Source: Planctomycetota bacterium | GTDB taxonomy: Bacteria > Planctomycetota > UBA11346 | Direction of reading: 5' to 3' | DNA length: 64,000 nucleotides | NCBI GenBank assembly: GCA_025055595.1 | Contig: JANWWU010000022.1 | Span: forward strand, 1 to 64,000 | In this document: in pieces, positions 17,921 through 26,470 of the stretch | How positions within the stretch are numbered: the first letter of the stretch is position 1 | Layout of the letters: the number at the start of each line of letters is the position of its first letter | Program-made: the position numbers and the translations under genes | The notes under the pieces: generated by a model | Told to the model about the DNA's origin: nothing | The model's database searches: none | The model's input: only the letters and a program-made list of their open reading frames with translations

Positions 17921-19249
17921 ATGCTAGCGCCAGGAGCCGAGCGCGGGGGGGATGGCAAGGCGACAGCGCCGACGGTGCTCGTCGTCGACGACGACGCTGC
18001 CGTCTGCTGGGCCGTCGAGCGGGCGCTCGCGGCGGCTGGCTGGCGGGTGCTCGTTGCCGCCGATGCCCGCGCCGCGCAGCGCCTCGCCGCTCAGGCCGAC
18101 GCAGTGCTGACCGATGTGCGGATGCCGGGCAGCAGCGGCCTCGAACTGCTAAGCTGGCTGCGCGCGCAGCGGCCGCAGATCCCGGTGGTCGTGATGACCG
18201 CCTATGGCCACCTCGACAGCGCCGTCGCCGCCGTTGCCCGCGGGGCCTTCGACTACCTGGCCAAGCCCCTCGATCTCGATCGCCTGCAGGGCGTGCTGGC
18301 GCGCGCCCTCGGCGAGACGCCGCTGGCTGCCGCCGCTCGTCCGCAGGCCGGCTTCGCCGAGGACGGGGTGATCGGCAGCTCGCCGGCGATGCAGGAGGTG
18401 TACCGCCGACTGGCGGCTGCGGTCGTCGCGCCGGTGGCGGTGCTGATCACCGGTCCGGCCGGCAGCGGCAAGGAGCTGCTCGCCCGCGTGCTGCACCGCC
18501 ATGCCTGCGGTGCCGCGGCGCCGATCGTCCGCGTGCCCTGCGCGCTGCTCGCTGAGCGCGCGGCCGAGGAGCTGACGGCGGCGCTGGCCGCGGCGCGCGG
18601 CGGCAGCCTGCTGCTGGACGAGGTCGATGCCCTGTCGGCCCCGGCGCAGGCCGCCTTGCTGCAGGCGCTGCAGCGCGATGCCGGCTGCCGCCTGCTCAGC
18701 CTCGCGCGCCGCGATCTGCGCGTGCTCGCCAGCTCCGCCGCCTGGAACGCCGACCTCGCCGGCCGCCTGGCGACCGTGCACATCGCGCTGCCGCCGCTCG
18801 CCGAGCGCGCCGACGACATCCCGGCGCTGGTGCGCGCGCTACTGGCGCGCTGCGCGCAGCAGCTCGGGCGCGAGCTGGCGATCACCGAACGCGCGCTGGC
18901 GGCGCTCGGCGCCTACGCCTGGCCGGGCAATGTCCGCGAGCTGCGCCAGGTGATCGAGGAGGCCGCGGTGCTGGCGGTCGGCGGCGTCATCGACTGCGAG
19001 CACCTGCGGATCGATCCTGCGAGCCAGGCGGCGCCGCTCGGCTTCGCCGCCGCGGCCGCCCAGCTGGCGCGGCGCCTGCTGGACAGCCACCCCGGCAGCG
19101 TCCACGCGCGTGCCGTCGCCGAGCTCGAGATCGCGCTGGTGCGCGAGGCGCTGGCGCGCACGGGCGGCAATCAGCTGCGCGCCGCCGAGCTGCTCGGCAT
19201 CAATCGCGCGACGCTGAAGAAGCGGATGGACGCCGCGGGAATCGCCTGA
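17921..19249 (+). CDS. NtrC-family response regulator lacking the GAFTGA motif
   Basis: The 442-residue protein has a receiver domain (DDD near residue 24, phospho-acceptor D65 in AVLTDVRMPG, Lys in YLAKPLDLD), an AAA+ domain with Walker A GPAGSGKELLAR and Walker B GGSLLLDEVDAL, and a Fis-type HTH at the C-terminus (GGNQLRAAELLGINRATLKK). The stretch between IVRVPCALL and the Walker B strand is short and contains no ELFGHEKGAFTGA segment, so the loop that touches sigma54 is missing. It may regulate with sigma70, like HupR or some NtrC variants. No sensor kinase is beside it. The stop overlaps the next ATG. Confidence 0.9.
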   Translation: MLAPGAERGGDGKATAPTVLVVDDDAAVCWAVERALAAAGWRVLVAADARAAQRLAAQADAVLTDVRMPGSSGLELLSWLRAQRPQIPVVVMTAYGHLDSAVAAVARGAFDYLAKPLDLDRLQGVLARALGETPLAAAARPQAGFAEDGVIGSSPAMQEVYRRLAAAVVAPVAVLITGPAGSGKELLARVLHRHACGAAAPIVRVPCALLAERAAEELTAALAAARGGSLLLDEVDALSAPAQAALLQALQRDAGCRLLSLARRDLRVLASSAAWNADLAGRLATVHIALPPLAERADDIPALVRALLARCAQQLGRELAITERALAALGAYAWPGNVRELRQVIEEAAVLAVGGVIDCEHLRIDPASQAAPLGFAAAAAQLARRLLDSHPGSVHARAVAELEIALVREALARTGGNQLRAAELLGINRATLKKRMDAAGIA

Positions 19250-21681
19250 TGTCTCGCTGGTGGACGCTGCTGCTGATCGTTGCATGCGGCGCCGCCGGCG
19301 AGATCCCGGCCGGGATGACAGAGCAGCGCCTGCCAGGCCTACGCCTCTACAGCGCTGTCGAGGCCGCGGCCACGCGCGCGCTCGCCGAGGAGCTGCAGCG
19401 CTTCCTGCCGGCGCTCAGCGCTTGGGCGGCACGCGCCATCGCCCCGCTGCCGCGCGCGGCCGCGGATCTGCCAGTGCTGTTCTTCGCTGATCGCAGCAGC
19501 TTCCGCGCCTATGCCGCGCGCCACGCGCAGCGCGTCGCGACCGTGCACGCCGCCGGCTTCTACAGCAGCGATGGTCGGCCAGAAACGGCGTTCATCGCGC
19601 TCTACCGCGATGGCGGCCGCGAGCAGGCGACCGTGCGGCACGAGCTGACGCACTGGCTGCTCGACCGCGCGATTCCGACCCGCCCCGGCCAGCCGGTGTG
19701 GTACAATGAAGGACTGGCGGTGTGCATGGAGGACGCCTGGATCAGCGATGGCGCGCTGGTGTTCAGCCGCGTTCCTCGGCAGCGCCAGGAGGTCCTGCGC
19801 CGCCTCGTGGCCGGCGCCGAGGAGCCCCTGGCGACGGTCGTCGCCCTCGGCAGCGAGGCCTGGCTGGCGCGCGCCGTCGATCACGAGCGCGCGCACCTCC
19901 AGTACACCGCCAGCTACGGCGCCGTCCTGTTCCTGCTGCAGCGCCACCCAGAGCGCCTCACCGCCTTCCTGCGCCGTCTCGCTCAGGGAGCAGCGCATGA
20001 TGCGGCGTACGCCGAGGCCTTCGCCGAGCTGCCGGGCGGACTCGATCGCGCCTGGCGCGCTTGGATGGCCGAGACGGTGTGGCTTGCGGCGCGCGGCACG
20101 ACGCCGCGTACGGCGCCGGAGGCCTTCGAGCACGGACTGGCCTGGCTGCCCGAGCACGCGGCAGGCGGCGATCGGCAGCGCGCCTGGTCCTGGCTGCAGC
20201 GCGCCGCCGAGCAGTTCGCGGCACGCGCCTCCGATGCCCGCGCCGCTGCCGACGCCTGGCTGGCGGCGGCCGAGGCTTGCGAGCAGCCGCCACGCGCGGC
20301 GCAGGCCGCCGAGACGGCGGCGGCCTGGTACGAGCAGGTGGCGCACGAGGCCGGCCAGGCCGAGGCCTGGCGCCTGGCCTGCCGTGCTTGGGGCAAGGCG
20401 GGGGACTGGCAGCGCGCGGCGCTGGCCGGCGGGCGTGCGCAAGCGATGGCGGAGCGCGTCGCCGACGAGGCGCTGCTGGCCGCCGCCCTCGCCGCCCATG
20501 CCGCGTGCTATGCCGCCGACCGCGCTCGCCCGCCCGCGGGGCAGACGCCGCAGGCCTTCGCGGCCCCGCTGTTTCATCGCGCCATCCAGCTCTATCGCCA
20601 GGCTGGCTGCGCGAGCGATGCGGCGCGCGTCGCCGTGCAGGCGGCCCAGGCCTTGGCGCCTCCCGACGGACAACCCGGCGACTGGGCCGGCTGCATCGCG
20701 CTGGTCGAGCAGGCGGTGCAGCACTGGCGTCGGGACGGCGCCGCCAGCGAGGGCGACGCCGACCTCGCCACCGCCGAGCGCGTGCTCGCCGGCCTGTGGC
20801 GGCCCGATCGCAATCCGGCTGGCAGCTGGACGGAGGCGATCGCGGGCTATCGCCGCGCGCTCGCCCTGCTCGATGACGGCGAGGCGCGAGAGCGCCTGCA
20901 CGCCCGCCTGGAGCTGGCCTCGTGCCTAGCAGCGGCTGCGGACCCGGAGACGATCGCGCAGTATCGCCGGGCGGAGAGCGAGGCGCTGGCCCTCGGCGAC
21001 CTCGCCCTGGCCGCCTACGCCGCGTACCAAGTCGGCTGGGAGCTGCGCGAACGCGAGCCGGAGGAGGCCGTCGCCGCCTTCTTGCGCGCAGCGCCGCGCT
21101 ATCGCCGAGCCGGCAAGCTGGCGGAAGAGATCGCGGCCATCGGCCAGGCGGCGCAGGTCCTGGCCGGCAGCGGTGGCGACCCCGCGCGCATCGCCGAGCT
21201 TCACCGGCAGGCGGCTGCGCTCGCGCGCGCCCGCGGCGACCTCTCGCGCCTCGGCTACCACCTGCATCAGCAGGCCTGGTTCAGCGAGCCGGCGCGGCAG
21301 CCGGGCCTGTCGCCCGCCATCGCAGCGGGCCTCTACGCGGCGGCCGCCCAGGCCTGGCAGAACGATCCCGAGCGCGCGGTGCGGGCCCTCTCTCAGCGCG
21401 CACGCGTCCTCACCCCGCAGCCAGGGGCGGCCGAGGGCTGGGAAGAAGCCGCTGCGGCTTGGCAGGCGGTGGCCGAGGCCTTGGCCGCGCTGCCGGAGAG
21501 CCGGCAGCGGCGCGGCGAGCGCGGCCAGGCGCTACACCAGCAGGCCTGGTGCCTGATCCGCGGCGATCACCAGCGCCACACGCGGCTCAGCCGCGCGCTG
21601 TTCAGCGAAGCTGCGCGCCTGCAAGAAGAGGCCGGCGACAGCCGCGGCGCCGCCGCCAGCCGCAGCTGGCTGCGCGAATGA
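19249..21681 (+). CDS. Secreted gluzincin-like metallopeptidase with TPR repeats
   Basis: The 810-residue protein has a signal peptide (MSRWWTLLLIVACGAAG). The motif H131-E-L-T-H135 followed by WYNEGLA with Glu at 154 is the zinc-binding pattern of gluzincin peptidases (HExxH plus a Glu about 19 residues later), as in the DUF1570-type proteins common in planctomycetes. Residues about 290-800 are Ala-rich helical repeats with TPR-like spacing. Substrate unknown; a role in envelope protein turnover is an inference. It starts inside the stop of the response regulator, so the two are probably co-transcribed. Confidence 0.6.
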   Translation: MSRWWTLLLIVACGAAGEIPAGMTEQRLPGLRLYSAVEAAATRALAEELQRFLPALSAWAARAIAPLPRAAADLPVLFFADRSSFRAYAARHAQRVATVHAAGFYSSDGRPETAFIALYRDGGREQATVRHELTHWLLDRAIPTRPGQPVWYNEGLAVCMEDAWISDGALVFSRVPRQRQEVLRRLVAGAEEPLATVVALGSEAWLARAVDHERAHLQYTASYGAVLFLLQRHPERLTAFLRRLAQGAAHDAAYAEAFAELPGGLDRAWRAWMAETVWLAARGTTPRTAPEAFEHGLAWLPEHAAGGDRQRAWSWLQRAAEQFAARASDARAAADAWLAAAEACEQPPRAAQAAETAAAWYEQVAHEAGQAEAWRLACRAWGKAGDWQRAALAGGRAQAMAERVADEALLAAALAAHAACYAADRARPPAGQTPQAFAAPLFHRAIQLYRQAGCASDAARVAVQAAQALAPPDGQPGDWAGCIALVEQAVQHWRRDGAASEGDADLATAERVLAGLWRPDRNPAGSWTEAIAGYRRALALLDDGEARERLHARLELASCLAAAADPETIAQYRRAESEALALGDLALAAYAAYQVGWELREREPEEAVAAFLRAAPRYRRAGKLAEEIAAIGQAAQVLAGSGGDPARIAELHRQAAALARARGDLSRLGYHLHQQAWFSEPARQPGLSPAIAAGLYAAAAQAWQNDPERAVRALSQRARVLTPQPGAAEGWEEAAAAWQAVAEALAALPESRQRRGERGQALHQQAWCLIRGDHQRHTRLSRALFSEAARLQEEAGDSRGAAASRSWLRE

Positions 21682-21847: not shown

Positions 21848-23377
21848 ATGACATCTCGCGAGAAGATCGCCGAGCTCATCGATCGAGCCTTGCCGGTGGG
21901 CGCCAAGCTCGTGCCGACGAGCGTCGCTCTGCACATCGCTGCCATCGATCTCTGTCTGTTGCGCGGCAAACGGGAGTTTAGCTGGCGAAGGAGGCATGTC
22001 CTGGAGAGCGACGCGACGCCGCGGACGAAGAAAGACATGCAGGAACGCCTGTCCCGTTTTCGGACGCAGCCGCCCAAGAGCATCCATCAGCTGTTCGCAT
22101 GGGGGAGCACCGAAGCTGCCTACGAAATCGGCAAACTGGATGAAAAGATCCCTTGTCCCGAGTGCCACGGCGACAGTCCGACACAATGTGCGACCTGTGA
22201 AGGCGTCGGGAAAGTAGCGTGTAAGCGCTGCGAAGGTCACGGCATCCTGAGCAATGCCGATGCCCTGCGCGCCTGCCCGAACTGCAAGAAAGGGCTCGTC
22301 GATTGTTCCAACTGCCGGGGGTCTGGCCTTATCAACTGTAGCAAATGCGAGAACCAGCACGAATTGTGGGAAGTCTACAAGATCCACTACAAAGATCACA
22401 TTGAAGTGACTGCGGTCGGTGGCCAGACCTTCGCCGAGCGATATAAGAGCAAGCTTTGGACAGTGCCGAAGGATTTCAGCATCAGTCGGGATTGGTCGGC
22501 CTACGGGCCGCCGCTGACGCTCGAGGATCAGGATGGACTGAGCACTGAACTGCTGCAGCCTCGTTCCCTCGAGGAGATGCGGAACTATGTCCAACAGAAG
22601 AAACCAGCGTTGATTGCACGCTTCGGCGAATCGGCATACGCCAACATCAATCAGGCCCTGGCCAAGGCCGATCCCGATGCTGACAATCGCTATGCGATCG
22701 CCTTGCGCGCTCTCAACTGTGTCACATTTACTTACCAACAAGACGACAAGAAACACAGCGCTGTCGGGCAAATTTTCTTCAGCGAGGGTCAGCCGAGCAA
22801 GGTCGAGTATCAAAGGACGGCCGCGCCACCATCGAAAGGCGCAACATGCCTCAAATACGGCTGCGGTTGTTTGACGTTCTTCTTCATCATCGGTCTGATT
22901 GGTTCGCTGTTTGAGGAGGACAAAGACAAAGCCAAGCAAGAAGGCGCGGCCGAGAAGCAGTCTGCCCCTGCCGCAACTGCTTCCGCGGCCGCTCAGCGCC
23001 CGCTGACAGGGCGCGTCATCTCGGTCAAGAACGGCTACCAGCTCAAGTTGCCGACCTTCGCGCTCGTCGAGTTTGCCGTATACGGCAAGTCATTGAGCGA
23101 CCAACAGCTGCTCGCGCTCGTCGGCAAGCGGCTGCAGATCATGCGCGACGATCAGGTGCTGGCCGAGGCAGAGATCGCGAACATCGTACCTGCGAGTCAA
23201 GCGGGCGATGTTTCCGAACCACGCGCCCAGGAAGACAAGGAGAACAAGGAAAAACAAGCGGCACCGACGCAGCAGCAGTTCCGCGCGCTGGTGCAAGTGG
23301 TCGATACCTCGTGGCGCGTGCCGGCTGACAAGCGGGAACTCGCCGTCGGCGACCTCGCAGCGCTGATGGACAACTGA
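21848..23377 (+). CDS. Membrane-anchored protein with six CxxC zinc knuckles, unknown function
   Basis: The 509-residue protein is not recognised as a known family. Residues 103-167 hold six CxxC pairs (C103/106, 114/117, 125/128, 143/146, 153/156, 164/167), several as CxxCxGxG, resembling the zinc-binding part of DnaJ, but there is no J domain or HPD. A single membrane helix (about 338-355) is followed by a Lys/Glu/Ala-rich linker and a C-terminal domain (385-509). The gene uses A/T-ending codons far more than its neighbours and the 166-bp leader before it is also AT-richer, suggesting transfer or relaxed selection. An AGGAG-like ribosome site precedes the ATG. Confidence 0.7.
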   Translation: MTSREKIAELIDRALPVGAKLVPTSVALHIAAIDLCLLRGKREFSWRRRHVLESDATPRTKKDMQERLSRFRTQPPKSIHQLFAWGSTEAAYEIGKLDEKIPCPECHGDSPTQCATCEGVGKVACKRCEGHGILSNADALRACPNCKKGLVDCSNCRGSGLINCSKCENQHELWEVYKIHYKDHIEVTAVGGQTFAERYKSKLWTVPKDFSISRDWSAYGPPLTLEDQDGLSTELLQPRSLEEMRNYVQQKKPALIARFGESAYANINQALAKADPDADNRYAIALRALNCVTFTYQQDDKKHSAVGQIFFSEGQPSKVEYQRTAAPPSKGATCLKYGCGCLTFFFIIGLIGSLFEEDKDKAKQEGAAEKQSAPAATASAAAQRPLTGRVISVKNGYQLKLPTFALVEFAVYGKSLSDQQLLALVGKRLQIMRDDQVLAEAEIANIVPASQAGDVSEPRAQEDKENKEKQAAPTQQQFRALVQVVDTSWRVPADKRELAVGDLAALMDN

Positions 23378-23443: not shown

Positions 23444-23908
23444 ATGGTGTGGCTGATCCGCACGCTCATCGGCTTCGCCGTGTTCGTCGTCGCAGTCGTG
23501 TTCGCTGCGACCTGGCTGCCGGCCTGGCTCAACCGCGTGCAGGTGCCCGTCGACTACGACGATCTGCAGGGACTGGAAGGCGGCAAAGGCCTGTGGCTCG
23601 AGCCACCGCCGTATCGAGCGGGCGATGTGCTCGCCTATCGCCTCGGACCCGGTCCCGATGACGTCGGCTTCGGTGTCGTCGTCGCCCTGCCAGGCGACAG
23701 CGTGCGGCTCAGCGAGGACCGCCTGCTGGTCAACGGCGAAGCGGTGCGTCCCTGGAGCCCCTATCAGCCGCTGCGCGGCTTGGCCGAGCTCGGACCGCTG
23801 ACCGTGCCGGCCGGCCACTGGTTCGTCGTCAGCACCCGCCACCAGCGCGACAGCCTCGCGCACGGCCCGATCGGCGCCGAGCGCGTGCTCGGCAAGGTGC
23901 GCGAATGA
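23444..23908 (+). CDS. Signal peptidase I-like protein lacking the catalytic dyad
   Basis: The 154-residue protein has an N-terminal membrane helix (about 4-25) and the later S26 signal-peptidase boxes: PGDSVRLSEDRLLVNGEAV, a V-P-x-G-x-W/Y-F-V-V turn, and RDSLAHGPIGAERVLGKV, which matches the DSRxxGPV region. Box B with the catalytic Ser-Met is not visible, and the general-base Lys of the KRVxGxPGD motif is Gly or Val here (GVVVALPGD). It is therefore probably a non-peptidase relative with a structural or binding role. It overlaps the next gene by 4 nt. Confidence 0.65.
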   Translation: MVWLIRTLIGFAVFVVAVVFAATWLPAWLNRVQVPVDYDDLQGLEGGKGLWLEPPPYRAGDVLAYRLGPGPDDVGFGVVVALPGDSVRLSEDRLLVNGEAVRPWSPYQPLRGLAELGPLTVPAGHWFVVSTRHQRDSLAHGPIGAERVLGKVRE

Positions 23909-24702
23909 ACGGCCCCTTCGTCTCCTGGTCCTCCGGCCAGCGGCTGCTGCTCGGCGTCGCCCTGCTGATCGCCGGGGCCGTGATGCTGGTGGCGGCAGCC
24001 GGGATCGCTTGGAGAGCGGTCCAGCGCTGGCTGGCGGTCGGCGAGCTGCGCGCGGCGCATGCCCAGCTGCATCGGGGCCGACTCGACGAGGCCCGCCGCT
24101 TGGCGGCCGCGGCGGCGGAGCGCCTGCCGCGGGAGCCGAGCGCCCAGCTGCTCGCGCTCGACCCGGCAGATCCGCAAGCCGGGGAACGGCTGCGCGCGCT
24201 CGCTTCTGCCTGCGAGCGCGCGAACGACCGCCACGCCGTGCTGGCGACCCTCGGCCTGCTCCAGGCCCTCGCTGGGCGCGCGGTCGATGCCCCGCTCGAG
24301 GGGACCGGCGATGCCCGCCTGCTGGCGGCCATCAGGGCGGCGCACGGCGAGCGGATGGCGAGCTGGCGGCTGGTCGCCGGCGAGGATCCGCCGCAGCGCC
24401 AGGTGCTGCTGGCGGCGCACACGGTGCTTCTGCGGCAGGCTCTTCGCCTGCGCAGCCGGGACGATGTCCGCCTGCATGCTGGCGCGCTGTTGCTGCTCGA
24501 CCCTGGGCACCCGCGTGCAGCGCTGTTGCGTCCCCTGCTGCTGGCCCTCAGCCCGGCGGCGGCAGACGAAGAGCTCGTGCGCGCGGTCGCCGAAGCGCGC
24601 GAAGAGAGCGAGGCGCTCGCGCGCACGATCGCGGCGCTCGTGCCCGAGCGTCGCGCGGCGCTGACGGCGCGCTGGCCGGGCCTCGCGGAGCAAACGCCAT
24701 GA
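23905..24702 (+). CDS. Membrane-anchored helical-repeat protein, unknown function
   Basis: The 265-residue product has one membrane helix near the N-terminus (about 13-36) and an Ala/Leu/Arg-rich helical remainder with TPR-like pairs (VGELRAAHAQLHRGRLDEAR and onward). No catalytic motif is visible. It is translationally coupled by 4-nt overlaps both to the signal-peptidase-like gene upstream and to the zinc-ribbon gene downstream, so the three small membrane proteins probably work together. Confidence 0.6.
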   Translation: MNGPFVSWSSGQRLLLGVALLIAGAVMLVAAAGIAWRAVQRWLAVGELRAAHAQLHRGRLDEARRLAAAAAERLPREPSAQLLALDPADPQAGERLRALASACERANDRHAVLATLGLLQALAGRAVDAPLEGTGDARLLAAIRAAHGERMASWRLVAGEDPPQRQVLLAAHTVLLRQALRLRSRDDVRLHAGALLLLDPGHPRAALLRPLLLALSPAAADEELVRAVAEAREESEALARTIAALVPERRAALTARWPGLAEQTP

Positions 24703-24995
24703 TCGTCTGTCAAGCCTGCGGGCACCGCAATCCCCTCCGCACGCGCTACTGCCACGCCTGCGGCGTGCGCCTCGAGGCGAACCTGCGGGAGATCGCGGTC
24801 GCGGTCGAGGAGGACCGCGAGGCGCAGATGGCGGAGCGCTGGTTGGAGCGCGGCCGCTCGCTCTTCTTGCTCGGCGCGTTCTTCTTGACCTGCGCGCTGG
24901 TGCTGCGCTACGCCGTGGTGCCGGAGCTGCCGCCGGCCGTCATGCCGCCGATCGCTGCCGGGCCCTTGCTGCCGCCGGCGGCGAGCGCGCCCTGA
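24699..24995 (+). CDS. Zinc-ribbon membrane protein
   Basis: The 98-residue protein begins with a four-Cys zinc ribbon, CQACGHRNPLRTRYCHACG (spacing CxxC-11-CxxC), followed by a charged helix and one membrane helix (about 52-72), and ends with a Pro/Ala-rich tail. Such ribbon-plus-helix proteins often act as adaptors, but no function can be assigned. It is the last of three overlapping membrane-protein genes, 2 nt before aroDE. Confidence 0.65.
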   Translation: MIVCQACGHRNPLRTRYCHACGVRLEANLREIAVAVEEDREAQMAERWLERGRSLFLLGAFFLTCALVLRYAVVPELPPAVMPPIAAGPLLPPAASAP

Positions 24996-24997
24996 GC

Positions 24998-26470
24998 ATG
25001 ACGCAGGTCGTCGTCCCCCTCGGCGACGCCGAGCCCGCGGCGCTGCTGGCGCGCGCGGCGCGGGCTCGGCAGCTCGGCGCCGATCTGCTCGAGCTGCGCC
25101 TCGACCTCGCGCTCGCGGCCGGCGCTCGCGCGGCCGACCTCCTCGCCGTGCTGCCGCAGCTGCCGCTGCCGGCGATCGTCACCGTGCGCCATCAACGAGA
25201 GGGCGGGCGATGGCAGGACGACGAGCGCGCTCGCCTGCGGCTCTACGAGGAGGCCGAGGCGCGCGGCGCGGCCTGGATCGATCGCGAGCTGGCGGCGCAG
25301 CGCGAACACCCCTGGCGGCCGACGCGTGCCCGCTTGCTGCTCAGCTATCATGCGTGGTCCGGTGCTGGCCAGGCGCTGCCCGAGGTTGTCGCGGCGATGC
25401 GTGCGGCCGGCGCCGACCTCGCCAAGCTGGCGGTGCTGGTGCGCGATGCCGCCGAGCTGGCGGCGCTGCGCGCCCTGCACGATCGCCGGGGGCCGGTGGC
25501 GGCGATGGCGATGGGCGAGGCCGGCCTGCCATCGCGGGTGCTGGCCGGGGTCTGGGGCGCGGCGCTGGTCTACGCGCGCTTGCCGGAGGATCCCGGCACC
25601 GCTCCCGGCCAGCCGGCGCTCGACGAGCTGCTGACGCTCTACCGCCTGCGCGCGCAGCGGCCGGAGACCGCGGTCTATGGCGTGATCGGCGCGCCGATCG
25701 CGCACTCGCTCTCACCGTTGGTCCACAACCTCGGTTTCGCGCACCACGGCATCGATGCCGTCTACGCGCCGTTCCTGGTGCACGACGCGCGCGCCTTCTG
25801 GCAGGCCTGCGGCGACTGGTTCGGCGGGCTCTCGGTGACCGTGCCGCACAAGCAGACGCTCGCCGCGCTGCTCGCGGAGTGCGAGCCCGAGGCGGCGCCG
25901 ATCGGCGCGATCAACACTGTCTACCGCCGCGCTGACCGCTGCTGCGGCGCCAACACCGACGCCGAGGCCGTGCGCCGCTGCTGCGAGCGGGCGCTCGGCG
26001 GCTCGCTGCACGGCCGCTGCGCGCTCGTTCTCGGCGCCGGCGGCGCCGCGCGCGCCGCCGTCCATGCCTTGCGCGCGGCCGGCGCCCGCGTGCTGATCTC
26101 CAATCGCACGCCGCAGCGCGCTGCGGAGCTGGCGGCGGAGTTCGCAGCGACCGTTGTGCCGCTGGCGCAGGCCGCGACCGCGCCCTATGACATCCTGATC
26201 AATGCGACGACGGTCGGCCTGCGCGCGCCCGACGACACGCCGTGGCCTCACCCGCTGCGTCCCGAGGCCCTGGTCTTCGACATGGTCTACGACCCGCTCG
26301 ACACCGGCCTGCTGCGCCGCGCGCGCGTCGCCGGCTGCTCGGTCGTCAGCGGCCTCGACATGTTCCTCGAGCAGGCGAGCGGGCAGTTCCGGCGTTGGAC
26401 GGGGCGGGAGCTGCCGATGGCGGAGGCCCGCGCCGCCTGCCTCGCCCGCCTCGCTCAGCGCAGCGTGTAG
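24998..26470 (+). CDS. aroDE: Bifunctional type I 3-dehydroquinate dehydratase / shikimate dehydrogenase
   Basis: The 490-residue fusion catalyses two consecutive shikimate-pathway steps. The AroD part (about 1-220) shows LLELRLDLAL, the catalytic His in LLSYHAW and the Schiff-base Lys in ADLAKLAVLV. The AroE part (about 225-485) shows GVIGAPIAHSLSPLVHN, the catalytic Lys in LSVTVPHKQT, the NADP loop VLGAGGAARAAVHAL and SNRTPQRA. Such fusions are typical of plants, Chlamydiae and planctomycetes. It converges on ftsQ with a 16-nt 3' overlap. Confidence 0.95.
   Translation: MTQVVVPLGDAEPAALLARAARARQLGADLLELRLDLALAAGARAADLLAVLPQLPLPAIVTVRHQREGGRWQDDERARLRLYEEAEARGAAWIDRELAAQREHPWRPTRARLLLSYHAWSGAGQALPEVVAAMRAAGADLAKLAVLVRDAAELAALRALHDRRGPVAAMAMGEAGLPSRVLAGVWGAALVYARLPEDPGTAPGQPALDELLTLYRLRAQRPETAVYGVIGAPIAHSLSPLVHNLGFAHHGIDAVYAPFLVHDARAFWQACGDWFGGLSVTVPHKQTLAALLAECEPEAAPIGAINTVYRRADRCCGANTDAEAVRRCCERALGGSLHGRCALVLGAGGAARAAVHALRAAGARVLISNRTPQRAAELAAEFAATVVPLAQAATAPYDILINATTVGLRAPDDTPWPHPLRPEALVFDMVYDPLDTGLLRRARVAGCSVVSGLDMFLEQASGQFRRWTGRELPMAEARAACLARLAQRSV

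What the first reader, a model, noticed from the sequence alone, without database searches (positions are those of the whole stretch)
23444..24995. Three overlapping membrane-protein genes of unknown function
A pseudo signal peptidase, a TPR-like membrane protein and a zinc-ribbon membrane protein are joined by 4-nt overlaps, next to the CxxC membrane protein. Stoichiometric co-expression suggests one membrane complex, possibly in protein export or quality control.
Basis: inference. Interest (0 to 1): 0.5.

Follow-up and report, generated by a model that had tools for sequence, protein, structure and literature searches.

The report
Three-gene membrane module with dead peptidase
Three overlapping genes, always found together and in the same order in one class of Planctomycetota bacteria, encode a signal peptidase that has lost its catalytic residues plus two new single-pass membrane proteins, and they probably build one envelope complex of still unknown purpose.

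Summary
Window 23444-24995 (+) carries three ORFs joined by two 4-nt overlaps: A (154 aa, S26 signal-peptidase fold), B (265 aa, one TM helix plus an alpha-solenoid, no known family) and C (98 aa, CxxC-x10-CxxC zinc ribbon plus one TM helix). They are conserved: A, B and C each occur in the same 17 of 23 genomes of the window's class (Planctomycetota) and in none of the other six. The order is A-B-C wherever contigs allow, with B and C overlapping in every locus measured. B is absent from the rest of the phylum sample. A is a pseudo-peptidase: all 16 members have Tyr/Phe at the nucleophile position and Gly/Ala at the Lys position, while every genome keeps a separate signal peptidase. In 11 genomes B carries an extra beta-sandwich domain and C an extra alpha/alpha-toroid; in the other six both are missing, never one alone, in three separate lineages. 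That argues for physical partnership. The upstream CxxC gene and downstream aroDE are not conserved neighbours. Best reading: a bitopic inner-membrane complex that binds exported peptides without cutting them, working like streptococcal SipA. The complex is likely; its job is inferred.

The parts
23444..23908 (+). Gene A: 154 aa, N-terminal TM helix and S26 (signal peptidase I) domain without the catalytic Ser and Lys
   Evidence: PF10502 E=2.8e-8 over its cut-off; best PDB matches of the family profile are S. pyogenes LepA/SipA, E=3e-10; Tyr/Phe38 and Gly/Ala77 in 16/16 members
23621..23902 (+). S26-like domain of A (residues 60-153), invariant F76, G84, P122, H133, D136, S137, G141, G150
23905..23908 (+). 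ATGA overlap of stop A and start B
23905..24702 (+). Gene B: 265 aa, TM helix (about residues 14-32) plus helical solenoid; short form without the C-terminal beta-sandwich domain found in 11 relatives
   Evidence: No Pfam/NCBIfam family; profile found in 17/23 class genomes and not at full length outside the class; AlphaFold model of a long homolog, mean pLDDT 90
24699..24702 (+). ATGA overlap of stop B and start C; B and C overlap by 4 nt (1 nt in one genome) in every locus measured
24699..24995 (+). Gene C: 98 aa, zinc ribbon (C4, C7, C18, C21) plus charged linker, TM helix (residues 56-74) and Pro-rich tail; short form without the alpha/alpha-toroid of 11 relatives
   Evidence: model of a long homolog, mean pLDDT 84
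24708..24761 (+). Four-Cys zinc ribbon of C
   Evidence: invariant in 17/17 homologs
24998..26470 (+). aroDE (3-dehydroquinate dehydratase / shikimate dehydrogenase fusion), 2 nt after C; context, not part of the module
   Evidence: Pfam PF01487, PF08501; not beside A-B-C in any relative fetched
21848..23377 (+). DnaJ-type CxxC protein 66 nt upstream; context, not part of the module
   Evidence: not beside A-B-C in any relative fetched

Best explanation
A, B and C are subunits of one inner-membrane complex made in fixed ratio by translational coupling. All three are single-pass proteins. A and C are placed with the N-terminus inside and the main domain outside; B is probably the same. C puts a zinc ribbon in the cytoplasm. 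A is a signal-peptidase fold without the Ser-Lys dyad, so it should hold a peptide or an exported client rather than cut it. B's helical solenoid is the scaffold. In the long form, B's beta-sandwich and C's alpha/alpha-toroid probably touch each other or the same client outside the membrane; the window's lineage has the reduced core without that pair. Likely job: holding or escorting an exported protein during assembly or quality control at the envelope. Shown: gene structure, conservation, co-occurrence, loss of the dyad, paired presence or absence of the two domains. Inferred: physical complex, side of the membrane for B, peptide binding, client and purpose. My estimate is about 0.8 for one complex and 0.4 for the non-catalytic client-holding role; the score below is for the whole statement.
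For: All-or-none distribution of A, B and C over 23 genomes, 17 versus 6. Conserved order and overlaps: -4 nt at A-B in 10 loci, near-contact in most others; B-C -4 nt in all measured loci except one at -1. Short B with short C in G000-G003, G006, G017; long with long in the other 11; no mixed case. Short-short occurs in three separate lineages, two of the contrasts on well-supported branches. The two missing segments are not contiguous, because C's N-terminal half lies between them, so one deletion cannot explain each event. No Ser or Lys column that could form the SPase dyad. Closest solved structures to A are LepA/SipA; SipA is a non-catalytic SPase-I-fold protein that keeps the peptide cleft and is essential for pilus polymerisation (PMC4049620). 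Separate LepB in all class genomes, with intact S and K motifs in nearly all full-length copies. C topology N-in by positive charges, 2-5 before the TM helix versus 0-2 after.
Against: No experiment and no complex prediction. Charges do not fix B's orientation. The toroid and solenoid assignments rest on models with weak Foldseek scores. Only about three independent co-loss events, too few for a sign test. The SipA paper found no detectable binding partner and a cleft mutant without effect, so cleft binding is unproven even there. None of the 23 genomes has a sortase and only 4 have an exosortase, so the SipA context itself is absent.
Confidence: 0.45

Rival explanations
1. The three genes are co-transcribed and co-inherited but their products act separately in one pathway, with no stable complex.
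For: Same operon and phyletic pattern would result. gmk is also a repeated neighbour without being a plausible partner, which shows that this locus keeps synteny.
Against: Paired loss of non-contiguous domains of B and C in three lineages; 4-nt coupling kept at B-C over all genera.
Confidence: 0.2
2. A is an active peptidase with an unusual catalytic set, for example around invariant H133, D136 and S137.
For: H133, D136 and S137 are invariant in 16/16; His at that position is not part of the box E motif of the LepBs seen here.
Against: D-S is the ordinary structural box E motif shared with LepB and SipA. The positions of nucleophile and general base are Tyr/Phe and Gly/Ala, and Gly is also what catalytically dead SipA has.
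Confidence: 0.1
3. The module is an envelope quality-control station tied to cytoplasmic Clp proteolysis through the second ClpS encoded next to it.
For: A second clpS lies on the same strand directly downstream of C in G005, G006, G007, G010, G012, G013, G016 and G019.
Against: clpS is not beside the module in the window's genus or in G008, and two clpS copies also occur in G004 and G014, which lack A-B-C.
Confidence: 0.15
4. In the window's genus the module is a decaying remnant: both extra domains are gone and the rest is on the way out.
For: Short forms of B and C; all three proteins diverge quickly within the genus (44-56% identity).
Against: All four genus members keep all three genes, exact 4-nt overlaps, the four zinc Cys and A's invariant residues; dN is below dS in every comparison.
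Confidence: 0.1

Closest known systems
Streptococcus pyogenes SipA/LepA (PDB 4n31, 4k8w)
   Same: SPase-I fold protein with an N-terminal TM helix and without the Ser-Lys dyad; Gly at the Lys site; best match of family A among solved structures
   Different: Nucleophile position is Asp in SipA, Tyr/Phe here; SipA sits in sortase/pilin operons, while no sortase exists in any of the 23 genomes; partners B and C have no counterpart there
Staphylococcus aureus SpsA
   Same: Inactive SPase paralog lacking two catalytic residues in a genome with an active SPase (PMC12445088)
   Different: From my own knowledge, spsA lies next to spsB; A is not beside lepB here
Type I signal peptidase LepB (S26A)
   Same: Homologous domain, PF10502
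   Different: Catalytic dyad absent; a separate LepB is present in every genome of the class
S. aureus TcaA
   Same: Architecture zinc ribbon - TM - extracellular domain; weak NCBIfam match over residues 1-73 of a long C (E=0.0015)
   Different: 17.5 bits against a family cut-off of 550; the extracellular part is an alpha/alpha-toroid in long C and absent in the window's C
Alpha/alpha-toroids (squalene-hopene cyclase, alpha-2-macroglobulin TED/C3d)
   Same: Long C has the KPDGSF...ATALAxLALQA repeat pattern; PDB profile match to squalene-hopene cyclase E=2.9e-5 and weak Foldseek matches to alpha-2-macroglobulin and C3d
   Different: No DxDD cyclase motif in the toroid and no thioester motif, so enzymatic or covalent action is unlikely; the domain is absent in the window

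Membership tests
Type I signal peptidase (active S26A) | S26 domain by sequence | tested here: met
   PF10502 34.3 bits versus cut-off 22.9
Type I signal peptidase (active S26A) | Catalytic Ser in box B (SM motif) | tested here: not met
   Tyr/Phe at the corresponding position in 16/16; no conserved Ser in the region. The exact column correspondence is by eye, not from a strong profile alignment
Type I signal peptidase (active S26A) | Catalytic Lys in box D (K before R..PGD) | tested here: not met
   Gly/Ala in 16/16; no column of A has a majority Lys
SipA-like pseudo signal peptidase | SPase-I fold without a Ser-Lys dyad | tested here: met
   (by sequence; A itself was not modelled)
SipA-like pseudo signal peptidase | Encoded with pilin and sortase genes | tested here: not met
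   No PF04203 sortase in 23/23 genomes; recurrent neighbours are gmk and clpS
SipA-like pseudo signal peptidase | Retained peptide-binding cleft | not tested
   No structure of A was predicted; both jobs went to B and C
TPR repeat protein (B) | TPR sequence signature | tested here: not met
   No TPR Pfam or NCBIfam hit for short or long B
TPR repeat protein (B) | TPR-type helical superhelix | tested here: inconclusive
   Alpha-solenoid in a pLDDT 90 model; Foldseek to TPR proteins with probability up to 0.98 but E above 0.02 and TM 0.3 or less
Zinc ribbon (C) | Two CxxC knuckles | tested here: met
   C4, C7, C18, C21 in 17/17
Zinc ribbon (C) | Pfam zinc-ribbon score over cut-off | tested here: inconclusive
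   DZR 23.8 bits versus cut-off 27.3
Terpene cyclase / alpha-2-macroglobulin TED (toroid of long C) | DxDD motif or CxEQ thioester | tested here: not met
   Absent from the toroid of all long forms; the single DxDD string, in G009, lies in the linker at residue 87

The most novel reading that the evidence does not exclude
A-B-C is a previously undescribed envelope machine of one class of Planctomycetota, built on a dead signal peptidase that presents exported clients to a solenoid scaffold, with a detachable outer module (the beta-sandwich of B and the toroid of C) that has been gained or lost as a pair several times.
Probability: 0.3. Interest if true: 0.65.

Novelty: new variant of a known kind. 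Interest (0 to 1): 0.5.

Why it matters
Non-catalytic signal-peptidase folds are known from a few Gram-positive bacteria, with one clear role (pilus assembly) and no known mechanism. Here one occurs outside that setting with two fixed partners, in single copy. The natural series of long, short and absent forms makes partner contacts testable: the model predicts which two domains should touch. It would also give two unannotated protein families a context.

Tried and rejected
The CxxC protein and aroDE as part of the module: rejected, not neighbours elsewhere. A sortase or exosortase partner by analogy with SipA: sortase in 0/23 genomes, exosortase in 4/23 with no match to the A-B-C pattern. ClpS as an obligate partner: rejected, its distribution differs. 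Toroid as an enzyme: no cyclase or thioester motif. Profile-profile alignment of A to LepB did not align the Ser region reliably. A terminator between the CxxC gene and A: the hairpin is no stronger than shuffles (z 0.20). Literature: no paper found on pseudo signal peptidases in Planctomycetota.

Full report
Observation. The window carries three ORFs on the + strand, A 23444-23908 (154 aa), B 23905-24702 (265 aa) and C 24699-24995 (98 aa), with ATGA overlaps at both junctions. A scores above the Pfam cut-off for peptidase S26 (34.3 versus 22.9 bits). B has no family. C has a zinc ribbon just below the cut-off. The upstream gene 21848-23377 has DnaJ-type CxxC motifs; the downstream gene 24998-26470 is a fused aroDE, 2 nt after C.

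Conservation. The class of the window's genome is represented by 23 genomes in 12 genera, all one order and one family. Profile searches found A, B and C in the same 17 genomes and in none of the other six. A in G013 is split over two contigs, and A and B of G012 lie at contig ends; otherwise the genes are adjacent in the order A-B-C. The six genomes without it are three of genus g2, G011, G014 and G021; G021 is only 68% complete. In a LepB tree g2 sits among carriers, although one g2 fragment places poorly, so at least one loss of the whole unit is likely. Outside the class, 369 further genomes of the phylum gave only short, weak partial matches to B. Named contigs from a collection scan, three hits from the same genus group, are MAGs, two of them labelled Planctomycetota.

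Overlaps. A and B overlap by 4 nt in 10 measured loci and by 1 nt in one; three others have gaps of 2, 3 and 39 nt, and one shows 137 nt that depends on the start chosen. B and C overlap by 4 nt in all measured loci except one at 1 nt. Third codon positions carry the largest share of change, and dN is below dS in every comparison.

Protein A. Across 16 homologs the invariant residues are F76, G84, P122, H133, D136, S137, G141 and G150. Where LepB has the Ser of P-S/T-A-S-M-E-P, A has Tyr or Phe, and where LepB has the Lys of F-V-K-R, A has Gly or Ala; no column has a majority Lys. The Lys box can be read across directly because the flanking F and PGD are shared. The Ser box correspondence is by eye, since the profile alignment was weak there. 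Separate LepB genes are found in all 23 genomes, with intact motifs in nearly all full-length copies. The best PDB matches of the A profile are S. pyogenes LepA/SipA at E about 3e-10, ahead of active signal peptidases. SipA is the known non-catalytic SPase-fold protein: Asp and Gly replace Ser and Lys, the cleft is kept, and it is essential for pilus polymerisation (PMC4049620).

Proteins B and C come in two sizes. In 11 genomes B is about 415-450 aa and C about 360-380 aa (two C and one B are cut by contig ends but already extend into the extra domain). In the other six, including the window, B is 259-280 aa and C 94-115 aa. A model of a long B (mean pLDDT 90, 16 sequences) shows a long TM helix, an alpha-solenoid and a seven-strand beta domain. 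A model of a long C (mean pLDDT 84) shows the zinc ribbon, the TM helix, a disordered Pro-rich linker and a helical domain. By sequence profile the latter resembles squalene-hopene cyclase (E=2.9e-5) and by fold, weakly, alpha-2-macroglobulin and C3d, so I read it as an alpha/alpha-toroid. It has neither the DxDD nor the thioester motif.

Co-loss. Long B always goes with long C and short with short: 11 and 6 genomes, no mixed case. Ignoring relatedness this split has a chance of 1 in 12376. With relatedness, the short pair appears in three separate places, in genus g1, in G006 (sister G016 is long) and in G017 (sister G022 is long); two contrasts lie on strongly supported branches. The missing segments, the 3' end of B and the 3' end of C, are separated by the retained 5' part of C, so each event needs two changes. 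Profile searches found no second copy of either domain in the short genomes. This suggests that the two domains work together, but the number of events is small.

Topology. C is N-in, C-out by flanking charges in nearly all members, with A N-in by homology to signal peptidases. B cannot be decided from charges. Placing its beta domain outside rests on the co-loss with C's toroid.

Neighbours. gmk lies divergently upstream of A in eight fetched loci and apparently in G005. A second clpS lies directly downstream of C in eight of the 13 loci whose downstream side is assembled. In the window both are gone, replaced by the CxxC gene and aroDE. Since gmk is kept in place as often as clpS, synteny alone is weak evidence of function.

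Function. I infer a non-catalytic, client-holding complex in the inner membrane: A binds, B scaffolds, C links to the cytoplasm through its zinc ribbon and, in long forms, adds an outer toroid. The SipA analogy is about mode of action, not membership: the sortase and pilin context was tested and is absent. Rivals are separate action without a complex, an active peptidase with another catalytic set, a link to Clp proteolysis, and a decaying remnant in this genus.

Verdict. The complex is likely but unproven, and its job is a hypothesis. Novelty: a new variant of a known kind, with B an undescribed family.

Noticed in passing
L151 (own genome C105), L153, L155 and the LepB loci L121-L143: The true signal peptidase I of this class is about 520-560 aa, with roughly 330 aa inserted between the Lys box and box E; Pfam recognises only the two S26 halves. 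The insert is present in genomes without A-B-C too.
   Followed up: partly
L047:7176-7499, L050:8134-8634, L051:7124-7477, L053:3682-4173, L054:11723-12040, L057:2315-2680: Most genomes of the class have two clpS genes; the one beside A-B-C mostly ends in a CPGVxC-type tail.
   Followed up: partly
window 21848-23377: 509-aa protein with repeated CxxCxGxG-type DnaJ zinc motifs and a TM segment, no J domain hit and no clear family.
   Followed up: no
window 19249-21681: 810-aa protein with a peptidase MA domain (PF13485, DUF1570) followed by a long helical repeat region, overlapping by one base a sigma-54 response regulator at 17921-19249.
   Followed up: no
window 23840-23842 (A residue 133): A His invariant in all 16 pseudo-peptidases at a position where the class's LepB and SipA have other residues; its role is unexplained.
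   Followed up: partly
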